A stretch of 64,000 bases of DNA from a virus, in the IMG/VR virus record IMGVR_UViG_3300022200_000019, positions 148,918 through 212,917 of that record; one strand, written 5' to 3'. The position numbers and the translations under genes are program-made. Position 1 is the stretch's first letter; each line of letters starts with the position of its first letter. Of the stretch, positions 21,177-41,057 are shown piece after piece. The notes below the pieces were generated by a model. The model was not told the DNA's origin and did not search any database. It saw nothing but the letters and a program-made list of their open reading frames with translations.

Positions 21177-21853
21177 TGTCATCATTGAACGAAGATCCAA
21201 TTAGAGATCTACTAAACAAGTTATTTGGTAAAAAGTCCGACGCACCTACTGCGGATACCGGATCGGAAGATAATATGGACAATGCTGCTAATACCGGTGA
21301 CATTACTCCAGGTCAAAGTTATAGTAGCGCAGCATCATTTGCTGACAAATATGATCGTAGCCCGATTAAAACATATGACTTACCTCCTTCAGATGTAAAA
21401 GCAGCGAATCCTCCGGGAACAGAGAACGAGCCTTTTGACATTGACGCTATGAATAAAGCAGATTCTTTAAGAAATCTATTTAAAAGAGATGAGCCAAGAA
21501 AGCCTGTTACTGTTAAGAACGTTGAACCTAAGAAACCAGGCGAATATACTGGTGTTACAAAAGCAGTCGACGATGCTGCAACATGGGTTGGAGATAAAGT
21601 AGATCAAGGTTGGGGTGCTGTTAAAGATTTCTTCAATGAACCAAGCACACCAGAACCAGCAGCAGATGATGAATCCGGTTGGTTAGACGGTGTTGTTGAT
21701 CGCTATAAAAGATTCTATGGCGTCGGCGACAAGGAAGCAGAAACTCCTAAACCTGCGTCTAAGCCAGCAGATAGCGATGCTGCTAGATCAGCCAACGACG
21801 CACTAAACAGACTAATGGCAGATCCAGAATTTAGAAAGATGTTGGATCAATAA
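21176..21853 (+). CDS. low-complexity protein, probable virion/core component
   Basis: The 225-residue protein is mostly disordered, rich in Asp, Pro, Ala, Lys and Asn. It has one short amphipathic segment, TWVGDKVDQGWGAVKDFFNEP, and a similar later piece, LDGVVDRYKRFYG. It is coupled to both neighbours by one-base overlaps (TAATG). Its composition resembles phage scaffold or core proteins. No enzymatic motif is seen and there is no clear N-terminal targeting tag. Confidence 0.6.
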   Translation: MSSLNEDPIRDLLNKLFGKKSDAPTADTGSEDNMDNAANTGDITPGQSYSSAASFADKYDRSPIKTYDLPPSDVKAANPPGTENEPFDIDAMNKADSLRNLFKRDEPRKPVTVKNVEPKKPGEYTGVTKAVDDAATWVGDKVDQGWGAVKDFFNEPSTPEPAADDESGWLDGVVDRYKRFYGVGDKEAETPKPASKPADSDAARSANDALNRLMADPEFRKMLDQ

Positions 21854-23745
21854 TGAACCTTTACGATCTATTTGAAGCCTTAGTTGGTCATGACATGCCT
21901 CGCAGCAAGAAATATAGCAGCGATCAGTCTGACTTTGAAATACAGCCGCAACTAGGTGAATTAATAGATCGTATCGAAGCAGGCGAAATCAAACCTAAAA
22001 TTGTAAAACTAAACCCACAGAAATTACAAGCAACGCAAGGATGGCTAGATACTCGCAATGGTGGCGGTGCGCCATTGCTAGATCGCTATACAAAATTACC
22101 TGTTATTCTTAAAGATCAATCAGGATATCATATCTTAGACGGGCACCATAGAACATCCCACGCTCTTAGTAAAGGACAACAATCGATTAAAGTTTATCTA
22201 TTTCGCATGCCCGACGATTTAAGCGAAGCATCGTTTGCTGATTTAAAGAAACTGGTTCCTGTGTATAATGTTGATGAATGGTCACAAGAATTAGGTATTC
22301 CACGTAAGGTAGCATACTTATACGGCGAACTTGGTTACTTACAACGCGGCAAACCAGAACAGATTATGGTTAAAGTTCAACATTTTATGGGCGGTGGCGG
22401 AGTTGTTCCGTTTTGCTTAGAACACGTAGGTGACTTGTCAGATCGTATGACACCTAGACATCCATTACATTGGAGTTATGGTGCTGTAAAAGAAAAAGCA
22501 GAAAAAACATACAGATCGTTAACACACAGTTATGGATTTGAGCGCGAGTTCCAAGAGAACCTAGACGCTACAATCGAATATCAAAAGATTGAAAATCCAG
22601 ATGAGTATCGTGAGCGTGTATATCGTGCTATGCAAATGTATGCCGATGCACATAAAGAATTGCTTCCATACTGCCACACAGATATTCACAAGAATGCTGT
22701 ATATGCTGCTATCTCATTGGGTGAAAGAAAGTTTGATGATGCTGCTACCTTTGTAGGTGCAATCAAACGTCTTTGTGCTAGCGAAGAAAGTTATCACAAT
22801 GCGCTAAGAGCATATGATAAAAAACTAGATGGCAAACTAGCAGGCGAAGAAGTACTAGACGAAGCGGGCGAATGGTGGAAAACATTTTCAGATGTAGTTT
22901 CTGGATCAAAAAAAGCATATGATACCGCAGTTATTGCTGGTCCCAAATGGCAAGCAGCAATTGATAGCAAAGATCCAGTTGTAATTGATCAAGGTATTAA
23001 AGACTTAGCAAAAGACTTAGGTATGGATCCAAACGATCCAAAATACAAGCAATGGGCAGGCAGTATGCGTTACAAAGCATACAAAGCAGCGGATATTAAA
23101 CACGATGTAACACGAGATGCTGAACGTAAAGCCTATGCTGCTGATCCACGACACTGGAAGGAACTTGAAATTCCCGGTTATGATGAACCCTGGGTTACAT
23201 TTAGTAAGCCATCCCCACGTGGTATTCCGCTTCGTGTAGGCGGTGACAAAGTAGATGAAGAGGCTCTTGACCGTTTTGAGATAGGCATGGGATTAGAGCA
23301 GATGCATAACAATGACATTGCTCTTGTTGGTGGCATGCGTTCAGGATCAAGCCCTGCTAACTTAACACGTTTAAAATATAGCATTTATGATGTTCCTATG
23401 CTAAAACAACTAAAGCAAACAGGTGGCAATCAAAATGACGCACTCATGGGCCATGTTGAATTAATGGTAGAAGATGGCACAGGCGATCTTATTGGTTTAA
23501 TTAACATCGAAATGAAGCGCGGCGGCAAACGCCAAGGTTACGGCTCACAAGTTGTGCGTTCTATTATTGATAGTCCGTTTGCTCGCAAGCCATTTAGAAT
23601 CTACGATATACAAAAGAAAGCTGTGGGTTTTTGGAAGAAGATGGGTGTAGAGTTTACACACTCAGACTTTAAAACTCCTATTGCGCCGACTCAGCTGCCC
23701 AGGCTTGCATTGGGACCAGGGAATATATTTGGAATCATACGATGA
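21853..23745 (+). CDS. tagged ParB/Srx-like plus GNAT-like fusion, putative packaged protein
   Basis: The 630-residue protein starts MNLYDLFE, a capsid-targeting-like tag with LFE as the protease site. Residues about 40-115 hold a ParB/sulfiredoxin-like fold with YHILDGHHRTSHAL (D96-R100). This motif binds nucleotide in CTPases/nucleases of the ParB superfamily. A long helical middle follows. At residues about 540-615, LIGLINIEMKRGG and GKRQGYGSQVV (G558-V567), then IYDIQKKAVGFWKKMG, match the acetyl-CoA-binding motif A and motif B of GNAT acetyltransferases. The combination suggests an enzyme carried in the capsid and injected, as T4 Alt is, but neither activity is proven. Confidence 0.65.
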   Translation: MNLYDLFEALVGHDMPRSKKYSSDQSDFEIQPQLGELIDRIEAGEIKPKIVKLNPQKLQATQGWLDTRNGGGAPLLDRYTKLPVILKDQSGYHILDGHHRTSHALSKGQQSIKVYLFRMPDDLSEASFADLKKLVPVYNVDEWSQELGIPRKVAYLYGELGYLQRGKPEQIMVKVQHFMGGGGVVPFCLEHVGDLSDRMTPRHPLHWSYGAVKEKAEKTYRSLTHSYGFEREFQENLDATIEYQKIENPDEYRERVYRAMQMYADAHKELLPYCHTDIHKNAVYAAISLGERKFDDAATFVGAIKRLCASEESYHNALRAYDKKLDGKLAGEEVLDEAGEWWKTFSDVVSGSKKAYDTAVIAGPKWQAAIDSKDPVVIDQGIKDLAKDLGMDPNDPKYKQWAGSMRYKAYKAADIKHDVTRDAERKAYAADPRHWKELEIPGYDEPWVTFSKPSPRGIPLRVGGDKVDEEALDRFEIGMGLEQMHNNDIALVGGMRSGSSPANLTRLKYSIYDVPMLKQLKQTGGNQNDALMGHVELMVEDGTGDLIGLINIEMKRGGKRQGYGSQVVRSIIDSPFARKPFRIYDIQKKAVGFWKKMGVEFTHSDFKTPIAPTQLPRLALGPGNIFGIIR

Positions 23746-24203
23746 GAGCAAACGAATTTATCAGCGAAATTAACCTAGATCCACGCTCGTGGTTTGGTGC
23801 TGGACAAATGGGTGGCCGTGGAGGCAGTGGCTCTCAAGCAGTTGCTACTGGCGGACGCACAGCACCAGCAACCGCCAAACCAAATCTAGGTAAATTTGAA
23901 CGTACACCAGATGGAAAGATCATTGATCCACAAGGACAGGTAGTTAATCCACGCACAGGCGATCCGTATACAAAAGCAGACGTAACCAGAGACACTGGTA
24001 AGAGTCCAGAGTTTAAGAGTATATCTCCAGAGCGTTCACACTATGCTAGAACTACACAAGCAGACCGTGTTAGAGACGAACGTGCTGCACGCAACATGGA
24101 ACGTTATGCCGATGAATACCAAGCAGCAAAAACTAGATGGCAAGAAAAAGGTGATGCTGCTTCATTTGGCGATATGATAAAGATTCTAAACAGAGTAGAT
24201 TAA
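23742..24203 (+). CDS. tagged small protein, putative internal virion protein
   Basis: The 153-residue protein starts MRANEFISE, a capsid-targeting-like tag with ISE as the predicted protease site. The mature part is Gly/Arg/Thr rich at first (GQMGGRGGSGSQ) and then basic and helical (VRDERAARNMERYADEYQAAKTRW). No enzyme motif is seen. It overlaps the previous gene by 4 nt and the next by one base, so all are made together. Confidence 0.65.
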   Translation: MRANEFISEINLDPRSWFGAGQMGGRGGSGSQAVATGGRTAPATAKPNLGKFERTPDGKIIDPQGQVVNPRTGDPYTKADVTRDTGKSPEFKSISPERSHYARTTQADRVRDERAARNMERYADEYQAAKTRWQEKGDAASFGDMIKILNRVD

Positions 24204-24436
24204 TGCGTGAATTGAGATATAACACGGAAACATTAGGTTTTTCGTCACCAGACGATAGTTGTTATCTAGATCCCAGCGATCCTATACACGAATTTCGTCG
24301 CACAGGCAATGCTGCTGCATTAAATCAACCACGACGTATTCCAGTTGCACAACAGTTTGCAGAACATGAACGTAAAATGGAATTAGCAAAAGCACAGGGT
24401 ATTCGTCCTGGTTCCCCAGCATGGTATATGTTATGA
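24203..24436 (+). CDS. small protein, unknown
   Basis: This 77-residue protein is coupled by TAATG to the previous gene and overlaps the start of the next. It has no targeting tag and no membrane segment, and contains Pro- and Arg-rich stretches (QPRRIPVAQQF). The role is unknown. Its position inside the tagged block suggests virion or assembly use. Confidence 0.55.
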   Translation: MRELRYNTETLGFSSPDDSCYLDPSDPIHEFRRTGNAAALNQPRRIPVAQQFAEHERKMELAKAQGIRPGSPAWYML

Positions 24437-25257
24437 AAGTATCAGAAATTATTTGCGAAGGCACTGGTATCGACCAGCACATCGCGCCGGAATTATTGCA
24501 ACAACAAGTAAATCAAATCATTGATGCTATTAAAGCAGGCGGTTATTTGTTAACGGATGCTGATAAAGCCTTGCTCGATTATGCACGTAAACAAAAAATC
24601 TATCATCCAGATGAAATTGCGAATAACAAATTCCATAAATCAATAATCGCATCTGTTAAGCCGTTGCTAAAAAAAATAGAACAGCTATGGTCTGAACCAC
24701 GCGATATAACCAGTGATGTTGAAGCAATTATTGGTGAGCCTATTCTTACCCTTCATCAAAAAATAAAACCATTGCTTGCAAATCCTAATAGACAACCAAT
24801 GGATTATGTTGTGCGAGCAAACTTAACACAATTATTAATTGCTGCTGCATGCCCAAAAAACAATGGCACTTGGGATACCAGCACAGCCAAATGCTATTCA
24901 AACAATTATCCTTGGATATTAGATCAGGTGAAGGAAAAGTATCGTGCTAAAGACAGAAAACGCCGTGCCAACATGACTCCAGATGAAAGAGAAGAGGTTC
25001 AGGCTAAAGACAGAGAATATCAGCAACAAAGACGGGATACCATGACTCCAGCTGAAAGAGAAGAGTATTTGGCTTACGACAGAGAACGGAAACGTAACCG
25101 TCTTGCCAACATGTCTCCAGCTGAAAGAGAAGAGTATCGGGCTAAACATAGAGAATATTACCAACAGTGGACGGCTAACATGTCTCCAGCTAAAAGAGAA
25201 GAGTATTTGGCTAAAAAAAGAGAACGGCAACAACGGCGGAAGGCCAAGAAAAAATGA
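24433..25257 (+). CDS. tagged protein with four basic 23-residue repeats
   Basis: The true start is the ATG at 24433 (MKVSEIICE, capsid-targeting-like tag with ICE). An in-frame ATG 12 nt earlier would hide the tag. The 274-residue product has a helical middle containing two cysteines (AACPKN and AKCYSN). It ends in four tandem 23-residue units of the type MSPAEREEYxAKxRExxxQ, with many Arg/Lys and a KKK end. The repeat region would form charged helices able to bind packaged DNA. The gene is linked to the next tagged gene by a 4-nt overlap. Confidence 0.7.
   Translation: MKVSEIICEGTGIDQHIAPELLQQQVNQIIDAIKAGGYLLTDADKALLDYARKQKIYHPDEIANNKFHKSIIASVKPLLKKIEQLWSEPRDITSDVEAIIGEPILTLHQKIKPLLANPNRQPMDYVVRANLTQLLIAAACPKNNGTWDTSTAKCYSNNYPWILDQVKEKYRAKDRKRRANMTPDEREEVQAKDREYQQQRRDTMTPAEREEYLAYDRERKRNRLANMSPAEREEYRAKHREYYQQWTANMSPAKREEYLAKKRERQQRRKAKKK
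24973..25248 (+). repeat. four tandem 69-nt coding repeats
   Basis: The Met codons that open each unit are at 24973, 25042, 25111 and 25180, exactly 69 nt apart. Each unit encodes an MTP/MSP-x-x-REE core followed by a basic stretch. Confidence 0.85.
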
Positions 25258-25457
25258 AAGTATCAGAAATCATCAACGAAGGTGTAGGACGTATTACGCC
25301 GCAAAACCAAACACAGGATGTCGGTCCTGATCAAGTTTCTATTGAAGCAAAGAAATTAGGTTTTAAAGTAGATCGGGATGGTCGCCCACCACTTTTAAGT
25401 TCAAACGCAAAGAAAAACACAAATCCTAACACACTATTCAATCTTGGCATAAATTAA
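25254..25457 (+). CDS. tagged 67-residue protein
   Basis: The protein starts MKVSEIINE, almost the same tag as the previous gene (MKVSEIICE), with INE as the protease site. The mature part of about 58 residues has a KKLGFKVDRDGRPPLL segment and an Asn-rich end. No fold is recognised. A duplication of the 5' end of the preceding gene is possible, since the first 24 coding bases are nearly identical. Confidence 0.65.
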   Translation: MKVSEIINEGVGRITPQNQTQDVGPDQVSIEAKKLGFKVDRDGRPPLLSSNAKKNTNPNTLFNLGIN

Positions 25458-27945: not shown

Positions 27946-30174
27946 ATGAACTTAAATGACATCCTCAACGAAAAAATTAAGAAAGTACATGGTAAGTGGG
28001 CCCTGGTAAGCAAAAGCGATCCGGATAAAGTCTTACAATATTATCATGGCAAAGACCATCCTAGCAAAGAATGGGAAAAGAAAGTTGAGCGTCGTGTTCA
28101 TGCATTCTCAGAAGCAGAAAGTTTAGACAAAACCATTGATAGAATGCGTAACTTAGATATCGATGATATCGAACACCTGAAGCGTTATTCAAACCCACAA
28201 TTAAAAGATTGGTTAAAACGCTTAACAGCAGCAAATAAAAACAATATTGGTTCAGCACTTAATACATTAGACACTATGGGTCCTATTGCTAAACCATTTG
28301 CTAAGTCATTTGTACAAAAGCAATTTCCAGGCATCGACGATACAGAGTTTGACCAAGCCTGGAAGTTCTGGCAAGAAACTGATCCAGCAACTCGTTCAGC
28401 AGTTACTAAAGGTGACTTGACTACGCTTGATCCAAGAGACGAACATGGCTTTGTTAAAGAAGCCAATAATGACATAGTAGCGAACAGTATCAATGAATAC
28501 AATACCGACGGCATTGATCCAGGAAACGATGAACTATTTGTGCCTATGGGTCTGCTCAACCGTTTTGAAGATAATGGGTGGTATGCATTTGACGGCGGTC
28601 GAGATCAAGCGGTGTTAGCCAAACGCAACATACCTTATGTGCTGAAAATTGTAGGTCAAGGATCGCACAACAGAATTGACGCAGTTCGCCAGTATGTTGA
28701 TTTCTTTCGTCGCAATCAACATAATCCACATTTTCCCAAAGTGGGTAGTGATAAAACACTAACCTGGGAAGGCAAAAAATACTATGCTTACGCTCAAGAA
28801 AAACTTATAGATTTACCGGGTGATGCGGTGATGGATTATCTCGAAGATACTATGCAATCATTTGGTCACAGCGGAAAACAGCCTAACTTTGACAAAATAC
28901 CCCAGGGGCTGTCAGCAAAGCAAGTTAAAGGTTTAATGAATGCTATTAGTGAGTTGCTTGCATCGGGCATAGGCAATAATCGTGCGTTTGATTTGGGTAA
29001 TGTCCTGAATATTATGAAACGAAAAAATGGACAGCTAGTGATTGTTGATCCATTTAGTTCTCACGATCGTTTAGATCCTAGCGAAGAATACGTGAGCGAA
29101 ACAGATGATTATGATGCTTGGTTAGAAAAAGCCAAAAAACGTGCAGAAAAGCAAGCAGCAAAAAAACGTGCTGAATTACAGCAAGTAATGAAGGGCATCG
29201 AAACCGATCCAGAAAAACTAGCATTACAAGGTACAATTCAAGCGGCACGCGGTGAGCTTAGTAAGCGTAAGCGTGAAGCATTGGCTAAGATGGAGCAAAT
29301 GAAACAAATTTACTCTGAGTTTTCTGATGAAGAATTAGATAAAATTATCGGGCGTTATTCAAAAGGTCCAGGTGCTGGTTCAGATTTTGTGGAATGGTTA
29401 AAGTCCATTAAACAAGAACGCGAAGACGAGCGGTCTGGTGTTCAACAACGACAGGATGTATTTAGAAGCGTGGCAGGACCCATGCAAGGCAAACAAAGCC
29501 AAAAGGCTGCACCTGCACAAGGTAAACCATGGACACAGTTAGGTATGACTCGTGATGAATTTAGAAAAATTCTAAACAACCCACAACATCCTCGTCATAG
29601 AGAAATTAAACAATTACACGATCAGTATAAACAAGTCGACGAAGATTTAACTCGCAGAGATTTCTTAAAAGGTGTCGCAGGCGGGGCAATGGCGCTAGGG
29701 GCTATGAAAGCTGCTAAAGCATTAGGATTAAAAGATCCTACCAGATCCACAGACACTGATGATCAGTACCAGAGATTCACAGGCGCAAAACCTGCACCAT
29801 TGTATGCTAAACCAGACCTGGATCCAGAACGTAAATGGAACCGTGTGGGTGTCAATCAACCAGGCGGTCAGTTCAGCATTGTGCTACACAAAGACTTTGA
29901 TTTATATTTGTATTTTGTAACACGTGATTTTTCCACATCGCCCTATGCCTACATAGAATTACAGGATGGTGAAAAATATAAATTCCGCATTCGTACTCTG
30001 AAAAACGATACATTTACCATCGAAGATCCCAGAATGGCAGCAACACTATTGAATTATCAAGGTAAATTCAATCTGTATGTTGGCGATGACGTGTACACAT
30101 TTAACATCATGCCCAGTCAGGAATCCAAAGTATTATATCGCTGGTGGAAAGAAGGCACACATCAGGGATTGTGA
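27946..30174 (+). CDS. tagged kinase-like protein with internal Tat motif, putative packaged effector
   Basis: This 742-residue protein starts MNLNDILNE, a capsid-targeting-like tag (LNE). Residues 10-50 hold the phage-typical HGKWALVSK block. Residues about 200-372 look like a protein-kinase/aminoglycoside-phosphotransferase fold: VLKIVG with K234, YAQEKLIDL as the hinge, RAFDLGNVLNIM (D349, N355) as the catalytic loop, and LVIVDPF (D368) as the DFG equivalent. The loop is one residue longer than the usual DxxxxN. A charged coiled-coil region follows. At 568-576, LTRRDFLKG plus an Ala/Gly-rich stretch is a twin-arginine signal, preceded by VDE (564-566), a possible prohead-protease site. The last 150 residues are beta-rich. 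Confidence 0.65.
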   Translation: MNLNDILNEKIKKVHGKWALVSKSDPDKVLQYYHGKDHPSKEWEKKVERRVHAFSEAESLDKTIDRMRNLDIDDIEHLKRYSNPQLKDWLKRLTAANKNNIGSALNTLDTMGPIAKPFAKSFVQKQFPGIDDTEFDQAWKFWQETDPATRSAVTKGDLTTLDPRDEHGFVKEANNDIVANSINEYNTDGIDPGNDELFVPMGLLNRFEDNGWYAFDGGRDQAVLAKRNIPYVLKIVGQGSHNRIDAVRQYVDFFRRNQHNPHFPKVGSDKTLTWEGKKYYAYAQEKLIDLPGDAVMDYLEDTMQSFGHSGKQPNFDKIPQGLSAKQVKGLMNAISELLASGIGNNRAFDLGNVLNIMKRKNGQLVIVDPFSSHDRLDPSEEYVSETDDYDAWLEKAKKRAEKQAAKKRAELQQVMKGIETDPEKLALQGTIQAARGELSKRKREALAKMEQMKQIYSEFSDEELDKIIGRYSKGPGAGSDFVEWLKSIKQEREDERSGVQQRQDVFRSVAGPMQGKQSQKAAPAQGKPWTQLGMTRDEFRKILNNPQHPRHREIKQLHDQYKQVDEDLTRRDFLKGVAGGAMALGAMKAAKALGLKDPTRSTDTDDQYQRFTGAKPAPLYAKPDLDPERKWNRVGVNQPGGQFSIVLHKDFDLYLYFVTRDFSTSPYAYIELQDGEKYKFRIRTLKNDTFTIEDPRMAATLLNYQGKFNLYVGDDVYTFNIMPSQESKVLYRWWKEGTHQGL

Positions 30175-31304: not shown

Positions 31305-31574
31305 ATGCGTGCCACAGAATTTTTAACAGAATCTTATCCAACAGTAACAATGAATTACCAGCAGTTTCTCGTTGAAGAACCTGTAAAAAGTTCATGGATT
31401 GAAGATTTATCTTATGTTGAATTCAAAGACGGATCTGGTGGTGTAAACATGACCACAAAGGGTGGCCGCACTTATTTTATCGAAGACGTACCATACGAAG
31501 TCTACGAACGCTGGTTAAAAGCTCTTAGCAAAGGCAAATTCTGGTGGTCAGACATCAAATACTTCTATACTTAA
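31305..31574 (+). CDS. tagged KTSC-domain protein
   Basis: The ATG at 31305 gives MRATEFLTE, a capsid-targeting-like tag. An earlier in-frame ATG at 31287 lies upstream of the late promoter and is unlikely. The 89-residue product has a second tag-like stretch, MNYQQFLVE, at residues 16-24. It then has a KTSC-like domain: SSWIEDLSYVEF, GRTYFIEDVPYEVYERWLKA and SKGKFWWSDIK. KTSC domains are small and of unknown role, sometimes fused to lysyl-tRNA synthetase-related or nucleic-acid proteins. The tag suggests packaging in the head. Confidence 0.7.
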   Translation: MRATEFLTESYPTVTMNYQQFLVEEPVKSSWIEDLSYVEFKDGSGGVNMTTKGGRTYFIEDVPYEVYERWLKALSKGKFWWSDIKYFYT

Positions 31575-31592: not shown

Positions 31593-32918
31593 ATGCGAGC
31601 AAGAGATTTCATTCTACTAGAATACAAGCACGACGTTACGATGAGAAACTATGGTGAAAAGTTTCGCGATCGCATGCTTGGCGATATGACCATTACTGCT
31701 AGTACTCAGAGTAAACTAGAAGATGCTAAAGCTAAAGGCATAGGTCCGTCCAGTGATACGTTCACTCCAGGCTATCTAAGAAGAATCGAACAATCAGATC
31801 CAACTCCAAATCGAGAATACACACAGTGGATGGTGCGTAGTTATATTAACCGTGTTGTTAATTATTACGAAGACGTATTATCTACACTTGCGGGCTTTGC
31901 TGGTATGTTTAACGAGCTTAAAATACATCGTCGTTTACCAGAAAAATATCGCGACATTAATCAAATCAAAACTCGAGAAATCTTTCGTGATGCTTATCGA
32001 GCAGTTGCTGATCGATATGAAGAATTCCGCGACGAACAGCAAGAACAGAAACCACTAAGCAAAGGCCACGCACAAGAAGTCTACAACGGACCAGAAGTGA
32101 GAATCATCCATCCTGTAGACCAAGCGGCTGCTTGTTACTATGGGCAAGGTACACAGTGGTGTACTGCTAGTACACGCAGCCAAAATTACTTTAATGATTA
32201 CAACAACGAAGGTCCGTTATTAATACTAATTCCCAAGAAGCCAGCGCATGAAGGCGAGAAATATCAATTACATGCTGCTAGCGAACAAGTTATGGACGAG
32301 CATGACAGTTCTGTTCCAATGGGTCACGTAGTAAGTAGATTCCCCAATACCAATCTTGGAGAGATTCTAATTAAATTTGATCCTGAATGGAAAGACTTTG
32401 CAGAACTAATGCATCCAGATGATCTTAAACGAATTGTTCGTTTGTATAACCAAAGACTTGTAAACTTTAACAAATGGATCTTGGATCAATACACCCAAAA
32501 CAGCTCAATGTCAAAACAGCAACAACAAGAACTAAAAGCTGCTGCGGAACGTGCTGGTTGGCCAAACGCTGGTACATTCACATACGATCAGTTTGCTGAA
32601 TATCTACGTACTGGATCTATCCATTCTAAGGAACGTTTTATAAGAACACTAGTTGATCTATCTTATGATTTATTAATCCCGCATTTAAGAAGCAATGACG
32701 CTCTTGAGCAGTTTGACAAGACTCCTAGAGATGTTTTAAATACTCAAGGAATGGTAGGATTAAGCAAAAGAAACTTTGTTCAAACATGGACAGTATTATT
32801 AAATGACTGGAGAATTCGGTTTAGTGATGAAGATCCAGATTGGGCAACATATGTTGGGCCTACTAACAACAGCATGTATAATAACGCAGTAGGGTATACC
32901 GATTGGAGTAGCCGATGA
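31593..32918 (+). CDS. tagged WCTA-core paralog 1, putative packaged protein
   Basis: The 441-residue protein starts MRARDFILLE (tag, LLE), then YKHDVTMRNYGEKF. The conserved core at residues 181-192 is CYYGQGTQWCTA (C181, W189, C190). NYFNDY, LLILIPKKP and GEKYQLH follow. The same core recurs in the next three genes. The N-terminal part includes DPTPNREYTQWMVRSYINR, also shared. I do not know the domain. Two Cys, the Trp and a following Asn/Phe/Tyr pattern suggest an active or metal site. The C-terminal 200 residues differ between paralogs, so each may carry a different function. Confidence 0.7.
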   Translation: MRARDFILLEYKHDVTMRNYGEKFRDRMLGDMTITASTQSKLEDAKAKGIGPSSDTFTPGYLRRIEQSDPTPNREYTQWMVRSYINRVVNYYEDVLSTLAGFAGMFNELKIHRRLPEKYRDINQIKTREIFRDAYRAVADRYEEFRDEQQEQKPLSKGHAQEVYNGPEVRIIHPVDQAAACYYGQGTQWCTASTRSQNYFNDYNNEGPLLILIPKKPAHEGEKYQLHAASEQVMDEHDSSVPMGHVVSRFPNTNLGEILIKFDPEWKDFAELMHPDDLKRIVRLYNQRLVNFNKWILDQYTQNSSMSKQQQQELKAAAERAGWPNAGTFTYDQFAEYLRTGSIHSKERFIRTLVDLSYDLLIPHLRSNDALEQFDKTPRDVLNTQGMVGLSKRNFVQTWTVLLNDWRIRFSDEDPDWATYVGPTNNSMYNNAVGYTDWSSR

Positions 32919-34249
32919 GAGCTCGTGAATTTATCGTAGAATATAAACGCGACATTACCATGAAAAACTGGTACGACAAGATCTTACGGCAACAAATGGT
33001 CGATAAAACCTACACCACACACGCTCAAAATGAAATCAGAGATTGGCTGGAAAAACGTGCTCGAGGAGAACTAACTCAACTTGAACAAGAGTTGTTAGAT
33101 CAATCAGTCGAAATGATAGTAAGACAATTTGAATCTGCAGATCCAAGTCCAAACAAACAGTATGTACAATGGATGTTGCGTATTTGGACCAATCCAAATG
33201 GTGTTGGCAGAATCGAAGATGTTACGTCCACAACAGCAGAAATGCTACACAAGTACCACGAACTAAAACAACGCAATCGTTTGCCTATTGACATTCGCGA
33301 CATTAACCAGGTTAAGGATATGCGAACACTGGAAAAGTTGCACGATGATGTGGATCGTTTATATGCATTACTAGATAAAGATAAAATAGCAGCAATGCCA
33401 AAAGGCTCTGCTCGTGAAGTATATAACGGACCAGATTTTAGACTTATCGTTCCAGAAGATGAAGCAGCCGCTTGTTATTATGGCCAAGGAACACGCTGGT
33501 GTACGGCAGCAACCAAGGGTCATAATATGTTTGATCACTATAGTAAGGCTGGCCCTATCTACATTCTCATTCCTAAAAAGCCAGAGTATGAAGGTGAAAA
33601 ATATCAATTACACGGCGCATCACGCCAATCAATGGATGAACGAGATCAGCCATACTATATTGGTAATTTACTTGGCAGATTCCCTGAGCTAAAAGAAATA
33701 TTATTTTCTACTGATGATTTTTATAGTTGGGTTGAGATAATGCCGGATGCTTTTGTTGAGGATGGCGTTGCTACCTGGAATGCGTATGCTGCGAAACATT
33801 TTAAAGAATGGGGTCTAACACAAGTATTGACTGGTTGGACGCGAACTGCTAAGAATCGCGGCGAGATTGTGGATGTACAAAAAACCTGGGAAAAGGTTAG
33901 AAAAGTATTGCTTGACTTGCTAGCAAATAGCGAAGTTTCAGTAGCAGACTTTTATGATGCTGCTACACAGACGCACATCAAAGGCGATACTGGTGCTACA
34001 GATGCTGAAAATGAGTTTGCTCGAATACTTTCATATGCGTGGAAGTATAACCTGATAGAAGCGTTAAAAGCCGGTTATCTGGGTGTGAATGCTAAGGTTA
34101 GTTTAGAACATCCTGAATGGGATATTACAGTTCGTGTAATAGATTCTGAAGCGAACGCCTGGAAAGATTCCACTGCCGAGTGGAGCAATGACGAGGGCTG
34201 GGAATTCTCCATTAATGATCCCGAAGATACTCGCTACAATGAGGACTAA
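32915..34249 (+). CDS. tagged WCTA-core paralog 2, putative packaged protein
   Basis: The 444-residue protein starts MRAREFIVE (tag, IVE), then YKRDITMKNWYDKI. It has the shared DPSPNKQYVQWMLRIW segment and the core CYYGQGTRWCTAAT. MFDHYSKAGPIYILIPKKP and GEKYQLHG follow. It overlaps paralog 1 by 4 nt. The C-terminal part (residues about 260-444) is helical, then beta-rich, with Trp/Asp/Glu near the end, and is unlike paralog 1. It is probably a recent duplicate that diverged at the C-terminus. Confidence 0.7.
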   Translation: MRAREFIVEYKRDITMKNWYDKILRQQMVDKTYTTHAQNEIRDWLEKRARGELTQLEQELLDQSVEMIVRQFESADPSPNKQYVQWMLRIWTNPNGVGRIEDVTSTTAEMLHKYHELKQRNRLPIDIRDINQVKDMRTLEKLHDDVDRLYALLDKDKIAAMPKGSAREVYNGPDFRLIVPEDEAAACYYGQGTRWCTAATKGHNMFDHYSKAGPIYILIPKKPEYEGEKYQLHGASRQSMDERDQPYYIGNLLGRFPELKEILFSTDDFYSWVEIMPDAFVEDGVATWNAYAAKHFKEWGLTQVLTGWTRTAKNRGEIVDVQKTWEKVRKVLLDLLANSEVSVADFYDAATQTHIKGDTGATDAENEFARILSYAWKYNLIEALKAGYLGVNAKVSLEHPEWDITVRVIDSEANAWKDSTAEWSNDEGWEFSINDPEDTRYNED

Positions 34250-34251: not shown

Positions 34252-35568
34252 GTGAGAGCCAAAGAGTTTTTATTAGAATATAACAGAGACATCACCAAAA
34301 AGAACTATGGTGACAAGATTGTTCTGCGCTGGGGCGTGGGAGCTGTTAGCAGTGGATTAAGCATTCGCCGTGTACACGACAAGATTCTTGCTGGCGAACC
34401 ATTGGATGCCAACGAACAAAATGTTTATGATGAAGCAGTTGCTAACATTATTAACAAAGCAGAAATTGCTGACCCAACTCCAAACAAACAATATGTACAG
34501 TGGCTTGTTCGTGCGTGGATCAATAAACTGCTAAGACTTGCTGAAGATATTCTTTCATCAGGCAGTGAGTTTGTTAAAATGTGGCACGAGTTAAAAACTC
34601 ACCGTATGCTACCGCCAAATTACACAGACATTAACAGAATTAAAACACCGAGCGATTGGAATCAGGCCTGGGTGGATATTCGAGCAGCATACGAAAACTT
34701 CAAACCCAAGAAGCCAATGCCCAAAGGCAAGGCACGTGAACTGTTAAACAATGCGGAAGTAAGAATCGTTCGCCCAGAAAATGAAGCAGCGGCTTGCTAT
34801 TACGGACAAGGCACACAGTGGTGTACGGCTGCTACAGAAACACGCAACTTGTTTGATCATTATCACAAAGATGGCGATCTAAGTATCTTTATTCCTAAGA
34901 ATCCACGGTACGAAGGTGAAAAATATCAACTGTGGGTCAATAACGACACTGGTGGATATCAGTTAATGAACGAACAAGACGATCCACTTGAATACGGCCT
35001 AGAAGAACTAACAGACAGATTTAATACATTAACTTATGAGATTTTAGAAAAACTACATCCAGCACTAATGAAACATCCTGAATTTAACACTGAAGAATTT
35101 GAGTCAGTTAAACGGCAAATTGCTGTTAACCTATTCAAAAATGGATACTTCAAATTAGCATATAGCGATCTAATTAATATGCTTGATGATTCATTTGACG
35201 AATACGACAAAGATTCCATTAATTATATGAAAGAAATGTTTATGGAAATGGAAGCTGAAGTGTTGCGAGCTATTAACAATGTTGGATACGATGAACTCGC
35301 ATTTAATGATCCTGGTGTAACATTCCCTGAGTTACCCAATGCTGTATTTAGATGGCTTGAATACATGACTGATGACACCAACATGTGGGGCGATTGGGCT
35401 GACGACGAATATATGGTAGGCTTTATCAGCAACATTGAAGCCTGGTTTAACAGACAAACAAATTGGGACAAGCGTAATCAGAATCAAACTCTGATACCGT
35501 ACTACAGCATCAAACAAGACGAAAAAACTGGAAAGTGGGAAGTAGAGTACGAAGGCCCGTGGACATGA
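34252..35568 (+). CDS. tagged WCTA-core paralog 3, putative packaged protein
   Basis: The 438-residue protein uses a GTG start that yields MRAKEFLLE (tag, LLE), then YNRDITKKNYGDKI. The DPTPNKQYVQWLVRAW segment and core CYYGQGTQWCTAAT are shared, with NLFDHYHKDG and FIPKNPRYEGEKYQL. It starts 2 nt after paralog 2. The C-terminal half is acidic with several Met/Glu helices. The GTG start could lower its translation compared with its siblings. Confidence 0.7.
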   Translation: MRAKEFLLEYNRDITKKNYGDKIVLRWGVGAVSSGLSIRRVHDKILAGEPLDANEQNVYDEAVANIINKAEIADPTPNKQYVQWLVRAWINKLLRLAEDILSSGSEFVKMWHELKTHRMLPPNYTDINRIKTPSDWNQAWVDIRAAYENFKPKKPMPKGKARELLNNAEVRIVRPENEAAACYYGQGTQWCTAATETRNLFDHYHKDGDLSIFIPKNPRYEGEKYQLWVNNDTGGYQLMNEQDDPLEYGLEELTDRFNTLTYEILEKLHPALMKHPEFNTEEFESVKRQIAVNLFKNGYFKLAYSDLINMLDDSFDEYDKDSINYMKEMFMEMEAEVLRAINNVGYDELAFNDPGVTFPELPNAVFRWLEYMTDDTNMWGDWADDEYMVGFISNIEAWFNRQTNWDKRNQNQTLIPYYSIKQDEKTGKWEVEYEGPWT

Positions 35569-36968
35569 GAGCAAACGATTTAATTTTTGAATACAAGCGT
35601 GACGTAACCGTAAAGAATTATACTGACAGACTGATTGATCGTATGATCAGCGATGGCAGTGTCGAACGTATGACGTTTGGCGGCAATGGATGGGGTTACA
35701 CCACAGATGATATGTTTGATATGGTTCGCGGCATTCAGTGGCAGAATCAACCGCCGTTGACTCCAGAAAAAGTAGAAGCAGCCAAGGAAATATTTGCGAG
35801 AGGTGCTATTACACAAATTGAGCAAGCAGATCCTACCAGTAAAAAAGCCTACACAGAATGGTTGGTAATGGCATATATCAACAGTATATTTGTGCGTTGG
35901 GAAGACATATTCTCAACTGGAACTGATTTCTTAGCAATGTATAACGACCTAAAGCAACGCAACTTATTTAATAAAGTCGATACTCTTAAAGCAGTATCAA
36001 ACATTAAACAAATCAACAATCGCGAAAGATTTAGATGGGCATATACTACAATTTCAAACGCACACGATTTTTATCTCGGTCAAACCACAGACATTGATCG
36101 CGGCGATGCTGAAGAAATCCACAACGGACCAGAAGTTCGTGTACTAAAAGTAAACGATCAAAAAGCAGCGTGTTATTATGGACGCGGCACAGAATGGTGT
36201 ACAGCAGCAACACGTTCTCGCAATATGTTTGATCACTATAACCGTACTGGAAACATATACATATTCATTCCTAAAAAGCCACAGCACGACGGTGAAAAAT
36301 ATCAGTTCTGGGCAGGCGACGATGGGCGCAACGTTGATATTCAACTAATGGACGAACACGACGAGCCAGTAGATTTTGAAACCTGGGACAATCGTTTTCC
36401 AGGATTGGGCATCAAATACTTGTATGATCTTGAACCTAAGGTATTGAGTCAGTTTGTTATGTTTAACCGAAAGCGATTTGATTATATCATAGCCGAAGTT
36501 GTTGAACTTTTACAAAACAACTGGAAATGGGATGTCGTTGCTGACTGGGAGCATGACGATGATTATTATTGGCAATGGTTGCGTGACGAAGGTTACATAG
36601 ATGACGAAGGCGACTTTGATGATGATAAAATGGAAAAAGACGGCATAAACTATCTAGAGTTTAACGACGATTTGCGCCGAGGACTAAACGACGTGTTTGA
36701 CGCTTTTGAAGAACTTACACCGTCAGAACTCAATAATTTTTATAGTGATGACAATGGTGGACCATTGGACTTCTACCGTATGATTGATACCTTAGGTGAC
36801 TGGATAGAAGATCAAGCCGGCAGTCACTATGAAAGTTTATTCAAAGATGCCGGTAATTTCATTGCCAATAATATTGGCAGTTACTCAGATAAGGAAGGTA
36901 ACTTTAAGGTAGATCATGTTGCTAATATTCGCGGTACACCTTATCTAGCGCATCCAGCTAGACGATAA
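35565..36968 (+). CDS. tagged WCTA-core paralog 4, putative packaged protein
   Basis: The ATG at 35565 gives MRANDLIFE (tag, IFE) then YKRDVTVKNYTDRL. An upstream start in the same frame would place ten extra residues before the tag and is rejected. The 467-residue product shares DPTSKKAYTEWLVMAYINS and the core CYYGRGTEWCTAAT, with MFDHYNRTGNIYIFIPKKP. It has an insertion near residue 30 (GGNGWGYTTDDMF) and a very acidic C-terminal region (DDDYYWQWLRDEGYIDDEGD). It overlaps paralog 3 by 4 nt. Confidence 0.7.
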   Translation: MRANDLIFEYKRDVTVKNYTDRLIDRMISDGSVERMTFGGNGWGYTTDDMFDMVRGIQWQNQPPLTPEKVEAAKEIFARGAITQIEQADPTSKKAYTEWLVMAYINSIFVRWEDIFSTGTDFLAMYNDLKQRNLFNKVDTLKAVSNIKQINNRERFRWAYTTISNAHDFYLGQTTDIDRGDAEEIHNGPEVRVLKVNDQKAACYYGRGTEWCTAATRSRNMFDHYNRTGNIYIFIPKKPQHDGEKYQFWAGDDGRNVDIQLMDEHDEPVDFETWDNRFPGLGIKYLYDLEPKVLSQFVMFNRKRFDYIIAEVVELLQNNWKWDVVADWEHDDDYYWQWLRDEGYIDDEGDFDDDKMEKDGINYLEFNDDLRRGLNDVFDAFEELTPSELNNFYSDDNGGPLDFYRMIDTLGDWIEDQAGSHYESLFKDAGNFIANNIGSYSDKEGNFKVDHVANIRGTPYLAHPARR

Positions 36969-36998: not shown

Positions 36999-37577
36999 AT
37001 GAACTTATCCGAAGAACTCAGAAAATATGCCAATATCTTAAATGAAGAACGCACAGACGAATACTTTGATTATGGCGACGATGCCGATACCAGCAATGAA
37101 CCAGCAGGTATGCCGTTTTATAAACTGCCTGCAAAAAGTTCAGCAGTAAAAATCACAAATAAAGCGCACCAAGCCGGACTAAACACAGTTGAGTTTCAAG
37201 GACAATATCTGAGTGTTTCGCCTAACCAAGCCGATCGGCTGGAAGAACTAATGCGTGCCATGCGCATGCAGTTTACGCCGGTAACGGGTGTTCCTGATTG
37301 GGGTGCAGATGATTCACATCTAAGTCGCAAAGAACGTGCTCGTGGCATGCCATATAAATTTAGCGAAAACAAATCGGTAATTCGTAAAAGATTTCCCAAA
37401 TTAGAAAAAGCAATTATTCAAGATCAAGATCCAGAGTTGGCATCTCTGTATGCCATAAAGGTAATCGGAGGCAGATGGCCCGAAGCAGAACCAGTGATTG
37501 CCAAAGATTCAGAGTCGGCATCTCTGTATGCCCGATATATACTCAAAGGTCCTTGGCCCGAAGCAGGGATCAAATGA
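36999..37577 (+). CDS. tagged protein with C-terminal 30-residue repeats
   Basis: The 192-residue protein starts MNLSEELRKYANILNE, a longer tag-like leader ending LNE. The middle includes LEELMRAMRMQFTPVTGVP and a basic patch. The last 50 residues hold two copies of a repeat (QDPELASLYAIKVIGGRWPEAEPVI and the related DSESASLYARYILKGPWPEAG), a unit I have seen in several phage and giant-virus proteins without a known role. The leader resembles SDELRKLAGLATED near the end of the protein at 38977. It is coupled by ATGA to the next gene. Confidence 0.65.
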   Translation: MNLSEELRKYANILNEERTDEYFDYGDDADTSNEPAGMPFYKLPAKSSAVKITNKAHQAGLNTVEFQGQYLSVSPNQADRLEELMRAMRMQFTPVTGVPDWGADDSHLSRKERARGMPYKFSENKSVIRKRFPKLEKAIIQDQDPELASLYAIKVIGGRWPEAEPVIAKDSESASLYARYILKGPWPEAGIK

Positions 37578-37987
37578 GAGCAAGAGAATTCACATCTGAA
37601 GCAGATATGACACGTAGAGATTTTCTCAAACGTGCAGCAGCAACACTGGCAGCACCAGCAGTAGCAAAGGCTGGTCCTCCGGTTAGTGACGAAACTACCC
37701 AAGCAGTTGATCTAGCACAAGATCCAAACTGGATGCCACTATACAAAGACGGCGAACCAGTTACTGCTCCTCCATATGCTCAAGAGTTATATGGCAAGGG
37801 TTATCCAAAAGATACAGATTATCGTCCCGTTGATCCAATTGATTCGTTTGAAAAAGACCCAGACGTTCAGAGATTCTATGATCTCAAAGCAAAACGTTGT
37901 TTGGCAAACCGTGGCACACCAGTAAAGGATGCGCAAGGTAACATAGATTGTACGCAAGTACGTGGTAAAGCATCGCAAACATGGTAG
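37574..37987 (+). CDS. tagged protein with twin-arginine signal
   Basis: The 137-residue protein starts MRAREFTSE, a degenerate tag (TSE instead of LxE). TRRDFLKRAAATLAAPAVAKA follows directly: a twin-arginine motif, hydrophobic stretch and AKA cleavage site. If the tag is removed in the prohead, the mature protein begins with a Tat signal. The remaining part (PNWMPLYKDGEPVTAPPYAQELYGKGYP) has two Cys near the end. This suggests a packaged protein that could be exported to the host periplasm after injection, or during synthesis. The fold is unknown. Confidence 0.65.
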   Translation: MRAREFTSEADMTRRDFLKRAAATLAAPAVAKAGPPVSDETTQAVDLAQDPNWMPLYKDGEPVTAPPYAQELYGKGYPKDTDYRPVDPIDSFEKDPDVQRFYDLKAKRCLANRGTPVKDAQGNIDCTQVRGKASQTW

Positions 37988-37993
37988 AGGTTG

Positions 37994-38233: not shown

Positions 38234-38237
38234 CCTG

Positions 38238-38245
38238 TATAAATA
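38238..38245 (+). promoter_or_regulatory. T4-type late promoter TATAAATA
   Basis: A perfect TATAAATA motif 28 nt before the GTG at 38274. In this case a proper ribosome binding site (AGGAG) lies between. Confidence 0.75.
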
Positions 38246-38273
38246 TTTTTAACATGTAGCACAGGAGTCTACC

Positions 38274-38513: not shown

Positions 38514-38520
38514 TTACTAG

Positions 38521-38528
38521 CATAAATA
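38521..38528 (+). promoter_or_regulatory. late promoter CATAAATA close to start
   Basis: CATAAATA lies 4 nt before the ATG at 38533. Confidence 0.7.
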
Positions 38529-38532
38529 CTGT

Positions 38533-38853
38533 ATGAAAGATACAGTATTCGTAAAACTCTGTGTGGATTTACACTGTGACTGGCAGGGGTTGCCACCAGA
38601 TTACCGTATCTATGTGGACAATGAATTGTTTGCTGAACGCACTTATCGTTGGGAAAAACCTGTATACCTGACAGAAATTCTTCAGATTAATGCAGTGCCT
38701 GACACAGAATATCTGGTCACACTGGACGATTTTGCACCACAGATTGCAAATTTCAAGATGTCAAACCACAGAGTTGAATATTGTGACTTGCCTGTGGAAT
38801 TTAACAAGTGTAAAGACAAAAAATTTAGGTTTAAAGTTAAAAATGAAAGTTAA
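38533..38853 (+). CDS. small beta-sandwich-like late protein
   Basis: The 106-residue protein has alternating strands (VFVKLCVDLHCDW, YRIYVDNELFAERTYRW, VYLTEILQINAVPDTEYLVTL) that suggest a beta-sandwich of the carbohydrate-binding-module kind. Similar phage proteins are usually structural. The last 11 nt overlap the next tagged gene. A loosely similar protein is at 18370. Confidence 0.6.
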   Translation: MKDTVFVKLCVDLHCDWQGLPPDYRIYVDNELFAERTYRWEKPVYLTEILQINAVPDTEYLVTLDDFAPQIANFKMSNHRVEYCDLPVEFNKCKDKKFRFKVKNES

Positions 38854-38980
38854 TGAGATAATTTCAGAAATGACCAGTGCTGGTGCTGTTGCCGCAGTAG
38901 CGCAACCATTAGGCGGCACAATTAGTCGTAACCAGGGCGTATATACCAAACCAAAAAAGAAAAAGAAGGGTAAAAAATGA
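38843..38980 (+). CDS. tagged 45-residue peptide with Lys-rich tail
   Basis: The frame MKVNEIISE, then MTSAGAVAAVAQPLGG and YTKPKKKKKGKK, is a complete 45-residue gene in a larger open frame. ISE is the protease site. The Ala-rich middle and lysine-rich end resemble small T4-like core or internal peptides bound to packaged DNA. The ATG overlaps the upstream gene, and its stop overlaps the next ATG (ATGA). Confidence 0.65.
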   Translation: MKVNEIISEMTSAGAVAAVAQPLGGTISRNQGVYTKPKKKKKGKK

Positions 38981-40449
38981 ACGATCCACAAATGAATAAT
39001 ATTCTAGCACGACTCAATTCTGTTGGCACTAAACCAGCAAGTGCATCCAATAACCGTAGTTCTAGCGCAGGCGACCCGGCCATGCACGAAATACTAAGTC
39101 GTTTTCATGCTGTGGGTAGTAAAACAACAGTCAACGAAGGACTAGGCGCAGAGCAACGCAAGGTGGGTCAACTAGGTCCAACTGACAAACCCAGCAAACG
39201 CAAAGATCATGCGTTCAAGGGTAAACTAGTTGGTGAAGATGATACATCTCGATTAGCCCAGCTAGAAAAAATGCGCAATCCAGAAGCCGAAGCAAACTTT
39301 GCTAAAACCGGTACTTATGGTCGCGAACAATCAGCAAAGATGCATTCGGGATTTTTTTCAATGCCAGATGAGTTTGAAGATCCACACAAAATGATCAAAG
39401 GCGCGATGAACATGGGCATGACAGCCGCTGATGTTGATGCAGCGTTGCCCAAAGGATACAGCATACCACCAGCGAAAGCACAAAAAACGTCAGGGTTTAG
39501 AACACCGTTTGATCAACCAGCAGGTGCTACAAACACATCAACTGGATTTACACCAGGATCTAATAAACTATTCCAAGACGAATTCAGTGAAGATTATAAC
39601 GTAGATGAATATGATCAAGAGGGCGAAATGGCTAAAGGGCAGCTAGACCGTGCTGCTGACGCTGCGCAAGAATTACACGATATTTTAGATGATTCGGATA
39701 ATTTACCAGAATGGGTACAATCAAAGATTACCAAAGCATTGGATTACTTAGATACCGCCAGAGATTATATTAAGAGCGAATTCAGCGAATCAGTCGAAGG
39801 TGCAGAAGATTCCTTAACCATGGGAATCCCGTTGTTTATTCGTATGCTAGAGTACGCTCGAGAAGAAGCAAAAACTGACGCAGACCTACATCATGTTACC
39901 AAAAAAATGTTAGACATGGGTGGCAATGTTACCATGGACGATTATGAAGAAATTATGTCCAGTGTTAGCGGCGAAGAATCAGAAATGGGTGAAGCTGTTG
40001 GTGATAAGCTCACTGATCTGGAATATGGTAGTTCTACTGCTACTCGAACTCCAACTGTAGGCGGCTATCACCAAAGACGTGATTTAGAAACAGGATCATA
40101 TACTGATTACACAGATCGTGGTCCGATCAGCACACAAACAACTTATGATAAATCAGGACAAATGACTAGCCAACACGCACAGGCACGTGTAGGTGATCAA
40201 TCAATGGCACGCTCTCGCTTTTATCCTAAGCGTAACGAAAGCGATGAATTACGCAAACTTGCTGGTCTTGCTACCGAAGACTATGTTGGCGGCCGAGAAG
40301 CACCAGCAGACTTAGTTAAAACGCTAAGTAAAAGTTATAGAGACTTTGTTAAAGAAGTTGAAGCTACTAGTGCTGCTAAACCAGATCGTGAACTGCGCAG
40401 TAAAACAGAAAAGCCACGTAAATTTGGCAATATCTTAGGTGAAGAATAA
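38977..40449 (+). CDS. probable head/core structural protein
   Basis: The 490-residue protein lacks the short N-terminal tag but contains the repeated motif DPQMNNILARLNSVG and DPAMHEILSRFHAVG near the start. A later helical part (GQLDRAADAAQELHDILDDSDNLPEWVQSKITKALDYLDTARDYI) is a segment I recall from marine T4-like head-associated proteins. It ends with SDELRKLAGLATED and KFGNILGEE, which contain possible prohead-protease sites. It is mostly disordered and charged. A scaffold/core or internal head role is likely. Confidence 0.6.
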   Translation: MNDPQMNNILARLNSVGTKPASASNNRSSSAGDPAMHEILSRFHAVGSKTTVNEGLGAEQRKVGQLGPTDKPSKRKDHAFKGKLVGEDDTSRLAQLEKMRNPEAEANFAKTGTYGREQSAKMHSGFFSMPDEFEDPHKMIKGAMNMGMTAADVDAALPKGYSIPPAKAQKTSGFRTPFDQPAGATNTSTGFTPGSNKLFQDEFSEDYNVDEYDQEGEMAKGQLDRAADAAQELHDILDDSDNLPEWVQSKITKALDYLDTARDYIKSEFSESVEGAEDSLTMGIPLFIRMLEYAREEAKTDADLHHVTKKMLDMGGNVTMDDYEEIMSSVSGEESEMGEAVGDKLTDLEYGSSTATRTPTVGGYHQRRDLETGSYTDYTDRGPISTQTTYDKSGQMTSQHAQARVGDQSMARSRFYPKRNESDELRKLAGLATEDYVGGREAPADLVKTLSKSYRDFVKEVEATSAAKPDRELRSKTEKPRKFGNILGEE

Positions 40450-41057
40450 TGAACTTTTACGAATTATTTGAAGCAAGCAAAGAAAAAGAAGAAAAATCAG
40501 AAAAAGCCGGTGAATATCAGGATGTGGCCATTGCTGATCCCAAGGCAGCAATTGCCCTAAAACAGGCACGTGCAAAATACACCTATGCACAGAGCGATTT
40601 AGAAGCATTTGTTAAAATGATGCAGGATCAAGAAGAAAAAGATCAGCAAGAGATTGACAACCTGGAAGCAGACACTGAACGTCAGGAAGAAGAAATCCAG
40701 CAGGCTGAAAAAGAAATACGAGAATTAGAAAAACGTGAAGCACAGGATACTGCCAAAAATAATGCAAAAATCAACAAACTCAACAAAGAAATTGATTTGC
40801 AAAACAGGCTGATTCAGACGCTCAACACCAAAGAACAGGGATACGAAAAAGCATTGGCCCAATATGCTGACAGAATTGAAAAGATCAATGCAGATCTAAC
40901 AGACCTGGAAGATCGCATGGGTGGTATCAAAGGGTTCCGTGCTCGTCCAAAATCCAAGGCACCACCATTACCAAAACCATCAGACTTTGCAGTGGGTCAG
41001 GCTGCTTTCCAACGTACACAAAGAGATGGAGGAATTCCAGATTTAGATACAGAATAA
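40449..41057 (+). CDS. tagged coiled-coil protein
   Basis: The 202-residue protein starts MNFYELFE (tag, LFE; compare MNLYDLFE at 21853). Residues about 45-160 form a long coiled coil with heptads (DNLEADTERQEEEIQQAEKEI and further). A Pro-rich linker (KAPPLPKPSD) and a short tail end the protein. It is likely an internal head or core protein. It ends the late block and is followed by a terminator. Confidence 0.7.
   Translation: MNFYELFEASKEKEEKSEKAGEYQDVAIADPKAAIALKQARAKYTYAQSDLEAFVKMMQDQEEKDQQEIDNLEADTERQEEEIQQAEKEIRELEKREAQDTAKNNAKINKLNKEIDLQNRLIQTLNTKEQGYEKALAQYADRIEKINADLTDLEDRMGGIKGFRARPKSKAPPLPKPSDFAVGQAAFQRTQRDGGIPDLDTE

What the first reader, a model, noticed from the sequence alone, without database searches (positions are those of the whole stretch)
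21853..41057. A battery of at least 14 proteins carrying T4-style capsid-targeting tags
Fourteen genes (starts at 21853, 23742, 24433, 25254, 27946, 31305, 31593, 32915, 34252, 35565, 36999, 37574, 38843, 40449) begin with variants of M-x-x-x-[ED]-[FIL]-x-x-E, for example MRAREFIVE, MKVSEIINE, MNFYELFE. Nearly all end in (L/I)xE, the cleavage rule of the T4 prohead protease gp21, and the pattern matches the T4 capsid-targeting sequence that packages Alt and internal proteins. Their remaining parts differ widely, from enzymes to basic peptides. This suggests a large set of proteins loaded into the head and injected at infection. T4 is known to have only a handful.
Basis: partly seen in the sequence, partly recalled or inferred. 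Interest (0 to 1): 0.92.

Follow-up and report, generated by a model that had tools for sequence, protein, structure and literature searches.

The report
Phage head-cargo tags, some hiding export signals
This uncultured giant phage, like its relatives, puts a short removable address tag on a dozen or more unrelated proteins, apparently so they are loaded into the virus head and injected into the host, and in two of them (and in many relatives) the head protease's predicted cutting site sits right in front of a bacterial export signal, suggesting the injected protein is then sent on to the cell wall.

Summary
Confirmed and extended. The window is the last 64 kb of a 212,917-bp phage contig whose closest named relatives by terminase are the PA5oct-like jumbo phages. 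Strict tags (M-x3-[ED]-[FIL]-x2-E) start 11 of 269 genes (about 0.5-0.9 expected), 9 of them among the 26 genes at 21176-41057 (P about 9e-9). Tags vary synonymously at codon level, recur in all eight related phages examined, and in IMG/VR the single spelling MRAxEFIxE starts 24 unrelated protein bodies. PA5oct homologues of three tagged families are flagged as mass-spectrometry-detected. A gp21-type (S77) protease lies just upstream of the capsid gene in near relatives; our contig is cut there. New: tagged proteins carry Tat signal peptides placed directly after a gp21-type site ([LIVT]xE), in the window at 37574 and 27946. In relatives the Tat passengers include GH19 lysozymes, a LysM+SLT transglycosylase and an M48 peptidase. 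19 of 21 Tat-like signals have the site, against 9.5% of all RR pairs. I propose that head maturation unmasks Tat signals, so injected enzymes are exported to the periplasm. Packaging by tag is well supported; protease-gated Tat export is untested.

The parts
21853..23745 (+). Tagged protein MNLYDLFE|A, 630 aa; weak ParB-like nuclease and GNAT acetyltransferase matches
   Evidence: PF08857 E=0.0086, PF00583 E=0.05, both below curated cut-offs
23742..24203 (+). Tagged protein MRANEFISE|I, 153 aa, no clear domain
24433..25257 (+). Tagged protein MKVSEIICE|G, 274 aa, Lys/Arg-rich helical repeats
25254..25457 (+). Tagged protein MKVSEIINE|G, 67 aa
27946..30174 (+). Tagged protein MNLNDILNE|K, 742 aa; weakly kinase-like middle, internal Tat signal, C-terminal domain of unknown function; late-type box 7 nt before ATG
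   Evidence: (phage kinase profiles E=0.02-0.03)
29644..29721 (+). Tat signal DLTRRDFLKGVAGGAMALGAMKAAKA inside 27946, directly after a gp21-type site (VDE|D)
   Evidence: PF10518 24.7 bits, above cut-off
31305..31574 (+). Tagged protein MRATEFLTE|S, 89 aa, KTSC-like; late-type box 4 nt before ATG; homologue of PA5oct gp309 (ESI-MS/MS)
31593..32918 (+). Tagged paralogue 1 of 4 (MRARDFILLE|Y), 'WCT' family of unknown fold; late-type box 4 nt before ATG
32915..34249 (+). Tagged paralogue 2 (MRAREFIVE|Y); homologue of PA5oct gp279 (ESI-MS/MS structural protein)
34252..35568 (+). Tagged paralogue 3 (MRAKEFLLE|Y)
35565..36968 (+). Tagged paralogue 4 (MRANDLIFE|Y)
36999..37577 (+). Doubtful member (MNLSEELRKYANILNE|E), possible second tag type
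37574..37987 (+). Tagged protein MRAREFTSE|A, 137 aa, Tat signal directly behind the tag
37601..37672 (+). Tat signal ADMTRRDFLKRAAATLAAPAVAKA of 37574, ending in an AxA signal-peptidase-like site
   Evidence: PF10518 22 bits, just under the 22.7 cut-off
38843..38980 (+). Tagged small protein MKVNEIISE|M, 45 aa
40449..41057 (+). Tagged coiled-coil protein MNFYELFE|A, 202 aa

Best explanation
The shared N-termini are T4-type capsid-targeting propeptides. Late in infection they steer a set of otherwise unrelated proteins into the prohead core; the gp21-type protease then cuts after (L/I/V)xE and frees the cargo inside the head, and it enters the host with the DNA. A subset has a second layer: a Tat signal peptide lies directly behind a protease site, either behind the tag itself or internally between two domains. 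Cutting makes the Tat signal the new N-terminus, so after injection the host Tat translocase can export the folded passenger to the periplasm. In relatives the recognisable passengers are peptidoglycan or envelope enzymes (GH19, LysM+SLT, M48). Shown here: tags, their statistics and modularity, the protease gene in relatives, mass-spectrometry flags for homologues, and the Tat signals with their adjoining sites. Inferred: cleavage, injection, Tat export. My confidence is about 0.88 in tag-directed head packaging and about 0.55 in protease-gated Tat export; the figure below is for the packaging and cleavage core.
For: Motif enrichment and clustering. T4 match: the first 10 residues of IPIII suffice for packaging, with processing residues at 8 and 10 (PMC9026906). 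Codons vary synonymously, so the peptide is selected. In paralogues the spacing varies but (L/I/V)xE stays (MRAREF-IVE|Y, MRASEFYRSVLLE|Y). MRAxEFIxE in IMG/VR: 144 matches, 121 of 143 within 20 codons of an upstream in-frame stop, 24 body clusters. S77 protease in 10 of 11 related records and next to scaffold and MCP in L018 and L020. PA5oct homologues gp279, gp309 and gp282 are flagged ESI-MS/MS. Three tagged window genes have a T4-late-type box at the start codon. Tat signals follow [LIVT]xE in 19 of 21 cases versus 9.5% of RR sites. In the large related genomes first surveyed, every Tat hit lies in a tag-bearing protein. Passengers are GH19, LysM+SLT and M48.
Against: No proteomics of this uncultured phage. 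Its own protease gene is not on the contig. PA5oct gp103, homologous to the N-terminus of 27946, is not flagged. The strict motif alone barely separates flagged from unflagged PA5oct proteins (2/93 versus 0/235, P = 0.08), and one further strict match (273747, unflagged) was outside my typed list. Only one of the two window Tat hits exceeds Pfam's cut-off. Tat cassettes may share ancestry, so the 19 cases are not independent. Host unknown, so possession of Tat is untested.
Confidence: 0.85

Rival explanations
1. The tags dock proteins into the prohead core, but the proteins serve only head assembly or DNA condensation and are not injected effectors.
For: IPIII-like and core proteins have assembly roles in T4 (PMC9026906); some members are small and basic or coiled-coil.
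Against: Bodies include GNAT, ART-like, kinase-like, lysozyme and peptidase domains, and the set changes from phage to phage.
Confidence: 0.15
2. The Tat-like segments are membrane anchors that help assemble proheads on the inner membrane, not export signals for injected proteins.
For: Proheads of SPN3US accumulate on the inner membrane (PMC7411985); an RR-free Ala/Gly-rich segment (EGWKDWxAGAALGAA) replaces Tat in some GH19 relatives.
Against: Consensus RRxFL, AxA sites in 19 of 21 cases, and passengers that act on peptidoglycan. An internal Tat segment would be masked until cut.
Confidence: 0.2
3. The Tat-GH19 and SLT enzymes are endolysins exported late from the producing cell; the tag is incidental.
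For: Where the tag directly precedes RR the uncut tag could serve as Tat n-region (37574, G008, L193, L217, L315).
Against: Internal Tat signals (27946, G003, G007, L192, L198, L206 and others) need a cut, and all those have the protease site.
Confidence: 0.15
4. The shared N-termini reflect DNA-level signals (promoter or ribosome binding) or chance.
For: Some starts abut a late-promoter box.
Against: Synonymous codon variation within tags and no common upstream sequence; chance expectation is about tenfold lower.
Confidence: 0.03

Closest known systems
T4 internal proteins IPI-III and Alt with capsid-targeting sequences
   Same: Short N-terminal peptide with EFIxE core, (L/I)xE cut site, late genes, unrelated bodies
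   Different: T4 has a handful; this phage has at least 13 in one region and more elsewhere. The usual tag is one residue shorter (MRAxEFIxE). Tat signals behind cut sites are not part of the T4 system as I know it.
Ejection proteins of phiKZ-like SPN3US
   Same: Many head-packaged proteins, some with N-terminal propeptides cut by the prohead protease
   Different: SPN3US propeptides are often long (111-130 aa) rather than a uniform 9-aa tag (PMC7411985)
Polyvalent proteins (Iyer et al. 2017, PMC5512222)
   Same: Multi-domain injected proteins; ParB, GNAT, ART and kinase domains also occur among these tagged proteins
   Different: That paper contains neither 'capsid targeting' nor 'twin-arginine'; here the tag is a uniform N-terminal peptide
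Pseudomonas phage PA5oct (Arenbergviridae)
   Same: Closest named relative by terminase (54.6% aa), same head module, homologues of three tagged families flagged ESI-MS/MS
   Different: Few strict tags and no clear Tat signal found in its proteins

Membership tests
T4-type capsid-targeting sequence | N-terminal 9-20 aa peptide ending in (L/I)xE | tested here: met
T4-type capsid-targeting sequence | same peptide on unrelated bodies | tested here: met
   24 body clusters share MRAxEFIxE
T4-type capsid-targeting sequence | gp21-type (S77) prohead protease encoded | tested here: inconclusive
   Absent from the contig, which starts at the MCP; present in 10 of 11 related records, next to the MCP
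T4-type capsid-targeting sequence | tagged protein present in virion | tested here: inconclusive
   PA5oct homologues gp279, gp309, gp282 flagged ESI-MS/MS, gp103 not
T4-type capsid-targeting sequence | cut after the Glu and injected | not testable with these tools
   needs virion proteomics and infection assays
Tat signal peptide | RRxFL with hydrophobic segment and AxA | tested here: met
   PF10518 24.7 bits for 27946 (cut-off 22.7) and 22.0 bits for 37574; AxA in 19 of 21 cases
Tat signal peptide | at the N-terminus of the exported chain | tested here: inconclusive
   N-terminal only after the predicted protease cut in 27946; near the N-terminus in 37574
Tat signal peptide | Tat-dependent export | not testable with these tools
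   host unknown
Polyvalent proteins | multi-domain injected proteins with ParB, GNAT, ART or kinase domains | tested here: inconclusive
   weak ParB/GNAT in 21853 and weak kinase match in 27946; clearer domains in relatives L206 and L223

The most novel reading that the evidence does not exclude
Protease-gated secretion: the phage head protease unmasks hidden Tat signals during capsid maturation, so that enzymes injected into the cytoplasm are re-exported by the host Tat pathway to act on the peptidoglycan or periplasm from inside.
Probability: 0.55. Interest if true: 0.92.

Novelty: new variant of a known kind. Interest (0 to 1): 0.8.

Why it matters
The tag gives a simple sequence rule for predicting which proteins of uncultured T4-related jumbo phages travel in the head and enter the host, which turns many unknown genes into testable effectors. 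The Tat signals behind protease sites would be a new way for a phage to address injected proteins to a compartment (head, then cytoplasm, then periplasm), and they would put lysozymes, a transglycosylase and a peptidase in the periplasm at the start of infection rather than only at lysis.

Tried and rejected
PF03420 on the contig itself gave nothing: the contig starts at the MCP, so this is uninformative. The PA5oct test with a simple LxE regex showed no enrichment; short generic LxE motifs are too common. Fold search of the paralogue model found no PDB match, only viral proteins including the PA5oct structural protein. The model of 27946 is too poor to use (mean pLDDT 48). A tblastn of a 34-aa consensus tag+Tat peptide against named phages found nothing, but so short, Ala-rich a query is weak evidence of absence. 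Motura and S-CREM2 GH19 annotations were inspected but their N-termini were not analysed. L351 (G077) has an ordinary untagged N-terminal Tat signal and was counted against the pattern, as was L364, whose Glu lies too far from RR. I could not read the PA5oct proteomics paper and rely on the ESI-MS/MS notes in the GenBank record. Literature searches for Tat signals in phage head proteins found nothing relevant, but the library lacks most subscription journals.

Full report
The window is positions 148918-212917 of a 212,917-base virus record. Its terminase is closest, among named phages, to those of Pseudomonas jumbo phages of the PA5oct group (54.6% aa). The contig begins at the major capsid gene (contig 65-1255; T4 gp23 hit). 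In near relatives the order upstream of that gene is portal, a small tagged gene (MNLNEMFEPA in L018), an acidic core protein, an S77 protease, scaffold, MCP, and Peptidase_S77 is found in 10 of 11 related records. The phage's own protease therefore probably lies just beyond the contig's end; the negative says nothing.

Observation. I called 269 genes. The strict motif occurs in 11, against 0.9 (internal Met) or 0.5 (shuffled N-termini) expected. Nine are among the 26 genes at 21176-41057, two among the other 243 (P = 8.6e-9). Further tagged genes outside the window are contig 39331 (MRSLSEFLTE|S; matches PHROG virion and internal head protein profiles) and 84270 (MNIRDIIRE|A).

What the tag is. 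T4 IPII and IPIII begin MKTYQEFIAE (my knowledge); the first ten residues of IPIII suffice for head targeting, and positions 8 and 10 govern processing (PMC9026906). MRAREFIVE aligns as EFIxE. Three lines show that the peptide is what is conserved. (a) Codons vary synonymously within tags, for example Ala GCA/GCC/GCT and Ile ATC/ATT/ATA. (b) Among the 'WCT' paralogues the distance from Met to the site varies while (L/I/V)xE stays (MRAREF-IVE|Y, MRASEFYRSVLLE|Y; more distant relatives have MKYIISENQYKILLKE|D). Related contigs G003-G009 and PA5oct carry 1-9 strict tags each, against about 1 or fewer expected.

Link to the virion. PA5oct's record flags ESI-MS/MS-detected proteins. Homologues of three tagged families are flagged: gp279 (the four paralogues at 31593-36968), gp309 (31305) and gp282 (contig 39331); gp103, homologous to the start of 27946, is not. 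In PA5oct itself the two strict tags in my typed gene list (gp333, gp246) are both flagged, and four of the five best scores under a profile trained on the window tags are flagged (P = 0.024), but the overall rank test is not significant. Three tagged window genes (27946, 31305, 31593) carry a T4-late-type box immediately before the start codon.

Tat signals. A Tat signal (RRDFLK) stands directly behind the tag of 37574 (TSE|ADMTRRDFLKRAAATLAAPAVAKA|G) and inside 27946 behind VDE (VDE|DLTRRDFLKGVAGGAMALGAMKAAKA). Relatives have the same layout: G003 (tag, ART-like domain, LEE|MNRRGFL..., GH19), G007 (VSE|ADMNRRGFL...), G008 (MRATEFVTE|MDRRGFL... then GH19), G009 (MLSKEIINE|MDRRNFL... then M48 peptidase), and IMG/VR loci L192-L207, L217, L315 and L350-L365. 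Of 21 Tat-like signals gathered, 19 have [LIVT]xE ending 2-4 residues before RR; among all 1133 RR pairs in eight of these phages the rate is 9.5%. The exceptions are one untagged ordinary Tat protein and one with a more distant Glu. Part of this follows automatically where the Tat signal adjoins the tag, and homologous cassettes are not independent; but for internal Tat signals behind varied upstream domains the site is again present in every case but the distant-Glu one. Where the passenger is recognisable it is a peptidoglycan or envelope enzyme: GH19 lysozyme (many), LysM+SLT transglycosylase (L315), M48 peptidase (L186). In some GH19 relatives the Tat signal is replaced by an Ala/Gly-rich segment behind xxE|GWKD.

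Mechanism. I propose late expression, core docking by the tag, cleavage by the S77 protease, injection with the DNA, and, for the Tat subset, export of the folded enzyme by the host. The first part follows T4 precedent; the Tat part is inference from anatomy. Searches of the held literature for Tat signals in phage head proteins found nothing relevant, and the polyvalent-protein paper contains neither 'twin-arginine' nor 'capsid targeting'.

Cargo. 21853 has weak ParB and GNAT matches; 27946 is weakly kinase-like and aligns with two small tagged kinase-like proteins of G009. The 'WCT' paralogue family has a confidently modelled N-terminal part (residues about 10-270), a tag modelled as disordered, no PDB match, and viral matches that include the PA5oct structural protein and giant-virus proteins.

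Limits. Nothing here shows cleavage, packaging or injection directly for this phage; its host is unknown; some domain calls are weak; gene starts come from my own simple gene caller.

Noticed in passing
own contig and relatives, e.g. window 31305, 31593, 27946, 18832, 58501: T4-late-type boxes (NATAAATA) lie at two distances from start codons: a sharp peak at 5 nt (32 cases, 4-8 nt in all 66) and a second mode at 17-23 nt, with none at 10-14 nt. If the start site is placed as in T4, the first class would be leaderless late mRNAs.
   Followed up: partly
window 54610-58479: 1289-aa subtilase (PF00082, E=1e-37) with an N-terminal lipobox-like segment, Thr-rich repeats and a C-terminal part ending in YRYKF that resembles an autotransporter barrel by eye; unusual on a phage contig.
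   Followed up: partly
window 5060-7696, 9515-10669, 10813-11769: By eye: tripartite-tricarboxylate-transporter-like genes, an ammonium-transporter-like gene and a PstS-like gene, i.e. host-type nutrient uptake genes.
   Followed up: no
window 30162-31212 (minus strand): Three short minus-strand genes with signal peptides or lipoboxes sit inside the plus-strand tagged cluster.
   Followed up: no
L194, L196, L197, L199-L201, L205; G009 233035: In the slot where other tagged GH19 proteins have a Tat signal, an RR-free element ([LV][DE]E-GWKD + Ala/Gly-rich segment) occurs, possibly another membrane-related signal.
   Followed up: partly
window 36999; contig 123628 (L007:3628): Two own proteins share M[NK]LxEELRxYxNIL[TN]E at the N-terminus, perhaps a second tag type.
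   Followed up: partly
window 31593-36968: The 'WCT' family of unknown fold also has predicted-structure matches in giant viruses (Marseillevirus LCMAC202).
   Followed up: partly
window 3028, 12950, 25461, 51204, 62615: By eye, several proteins start with an SGNH-hydrolase-like GDS or similar motif; apparently a multi-copy family in one phage.
   Followed up: no
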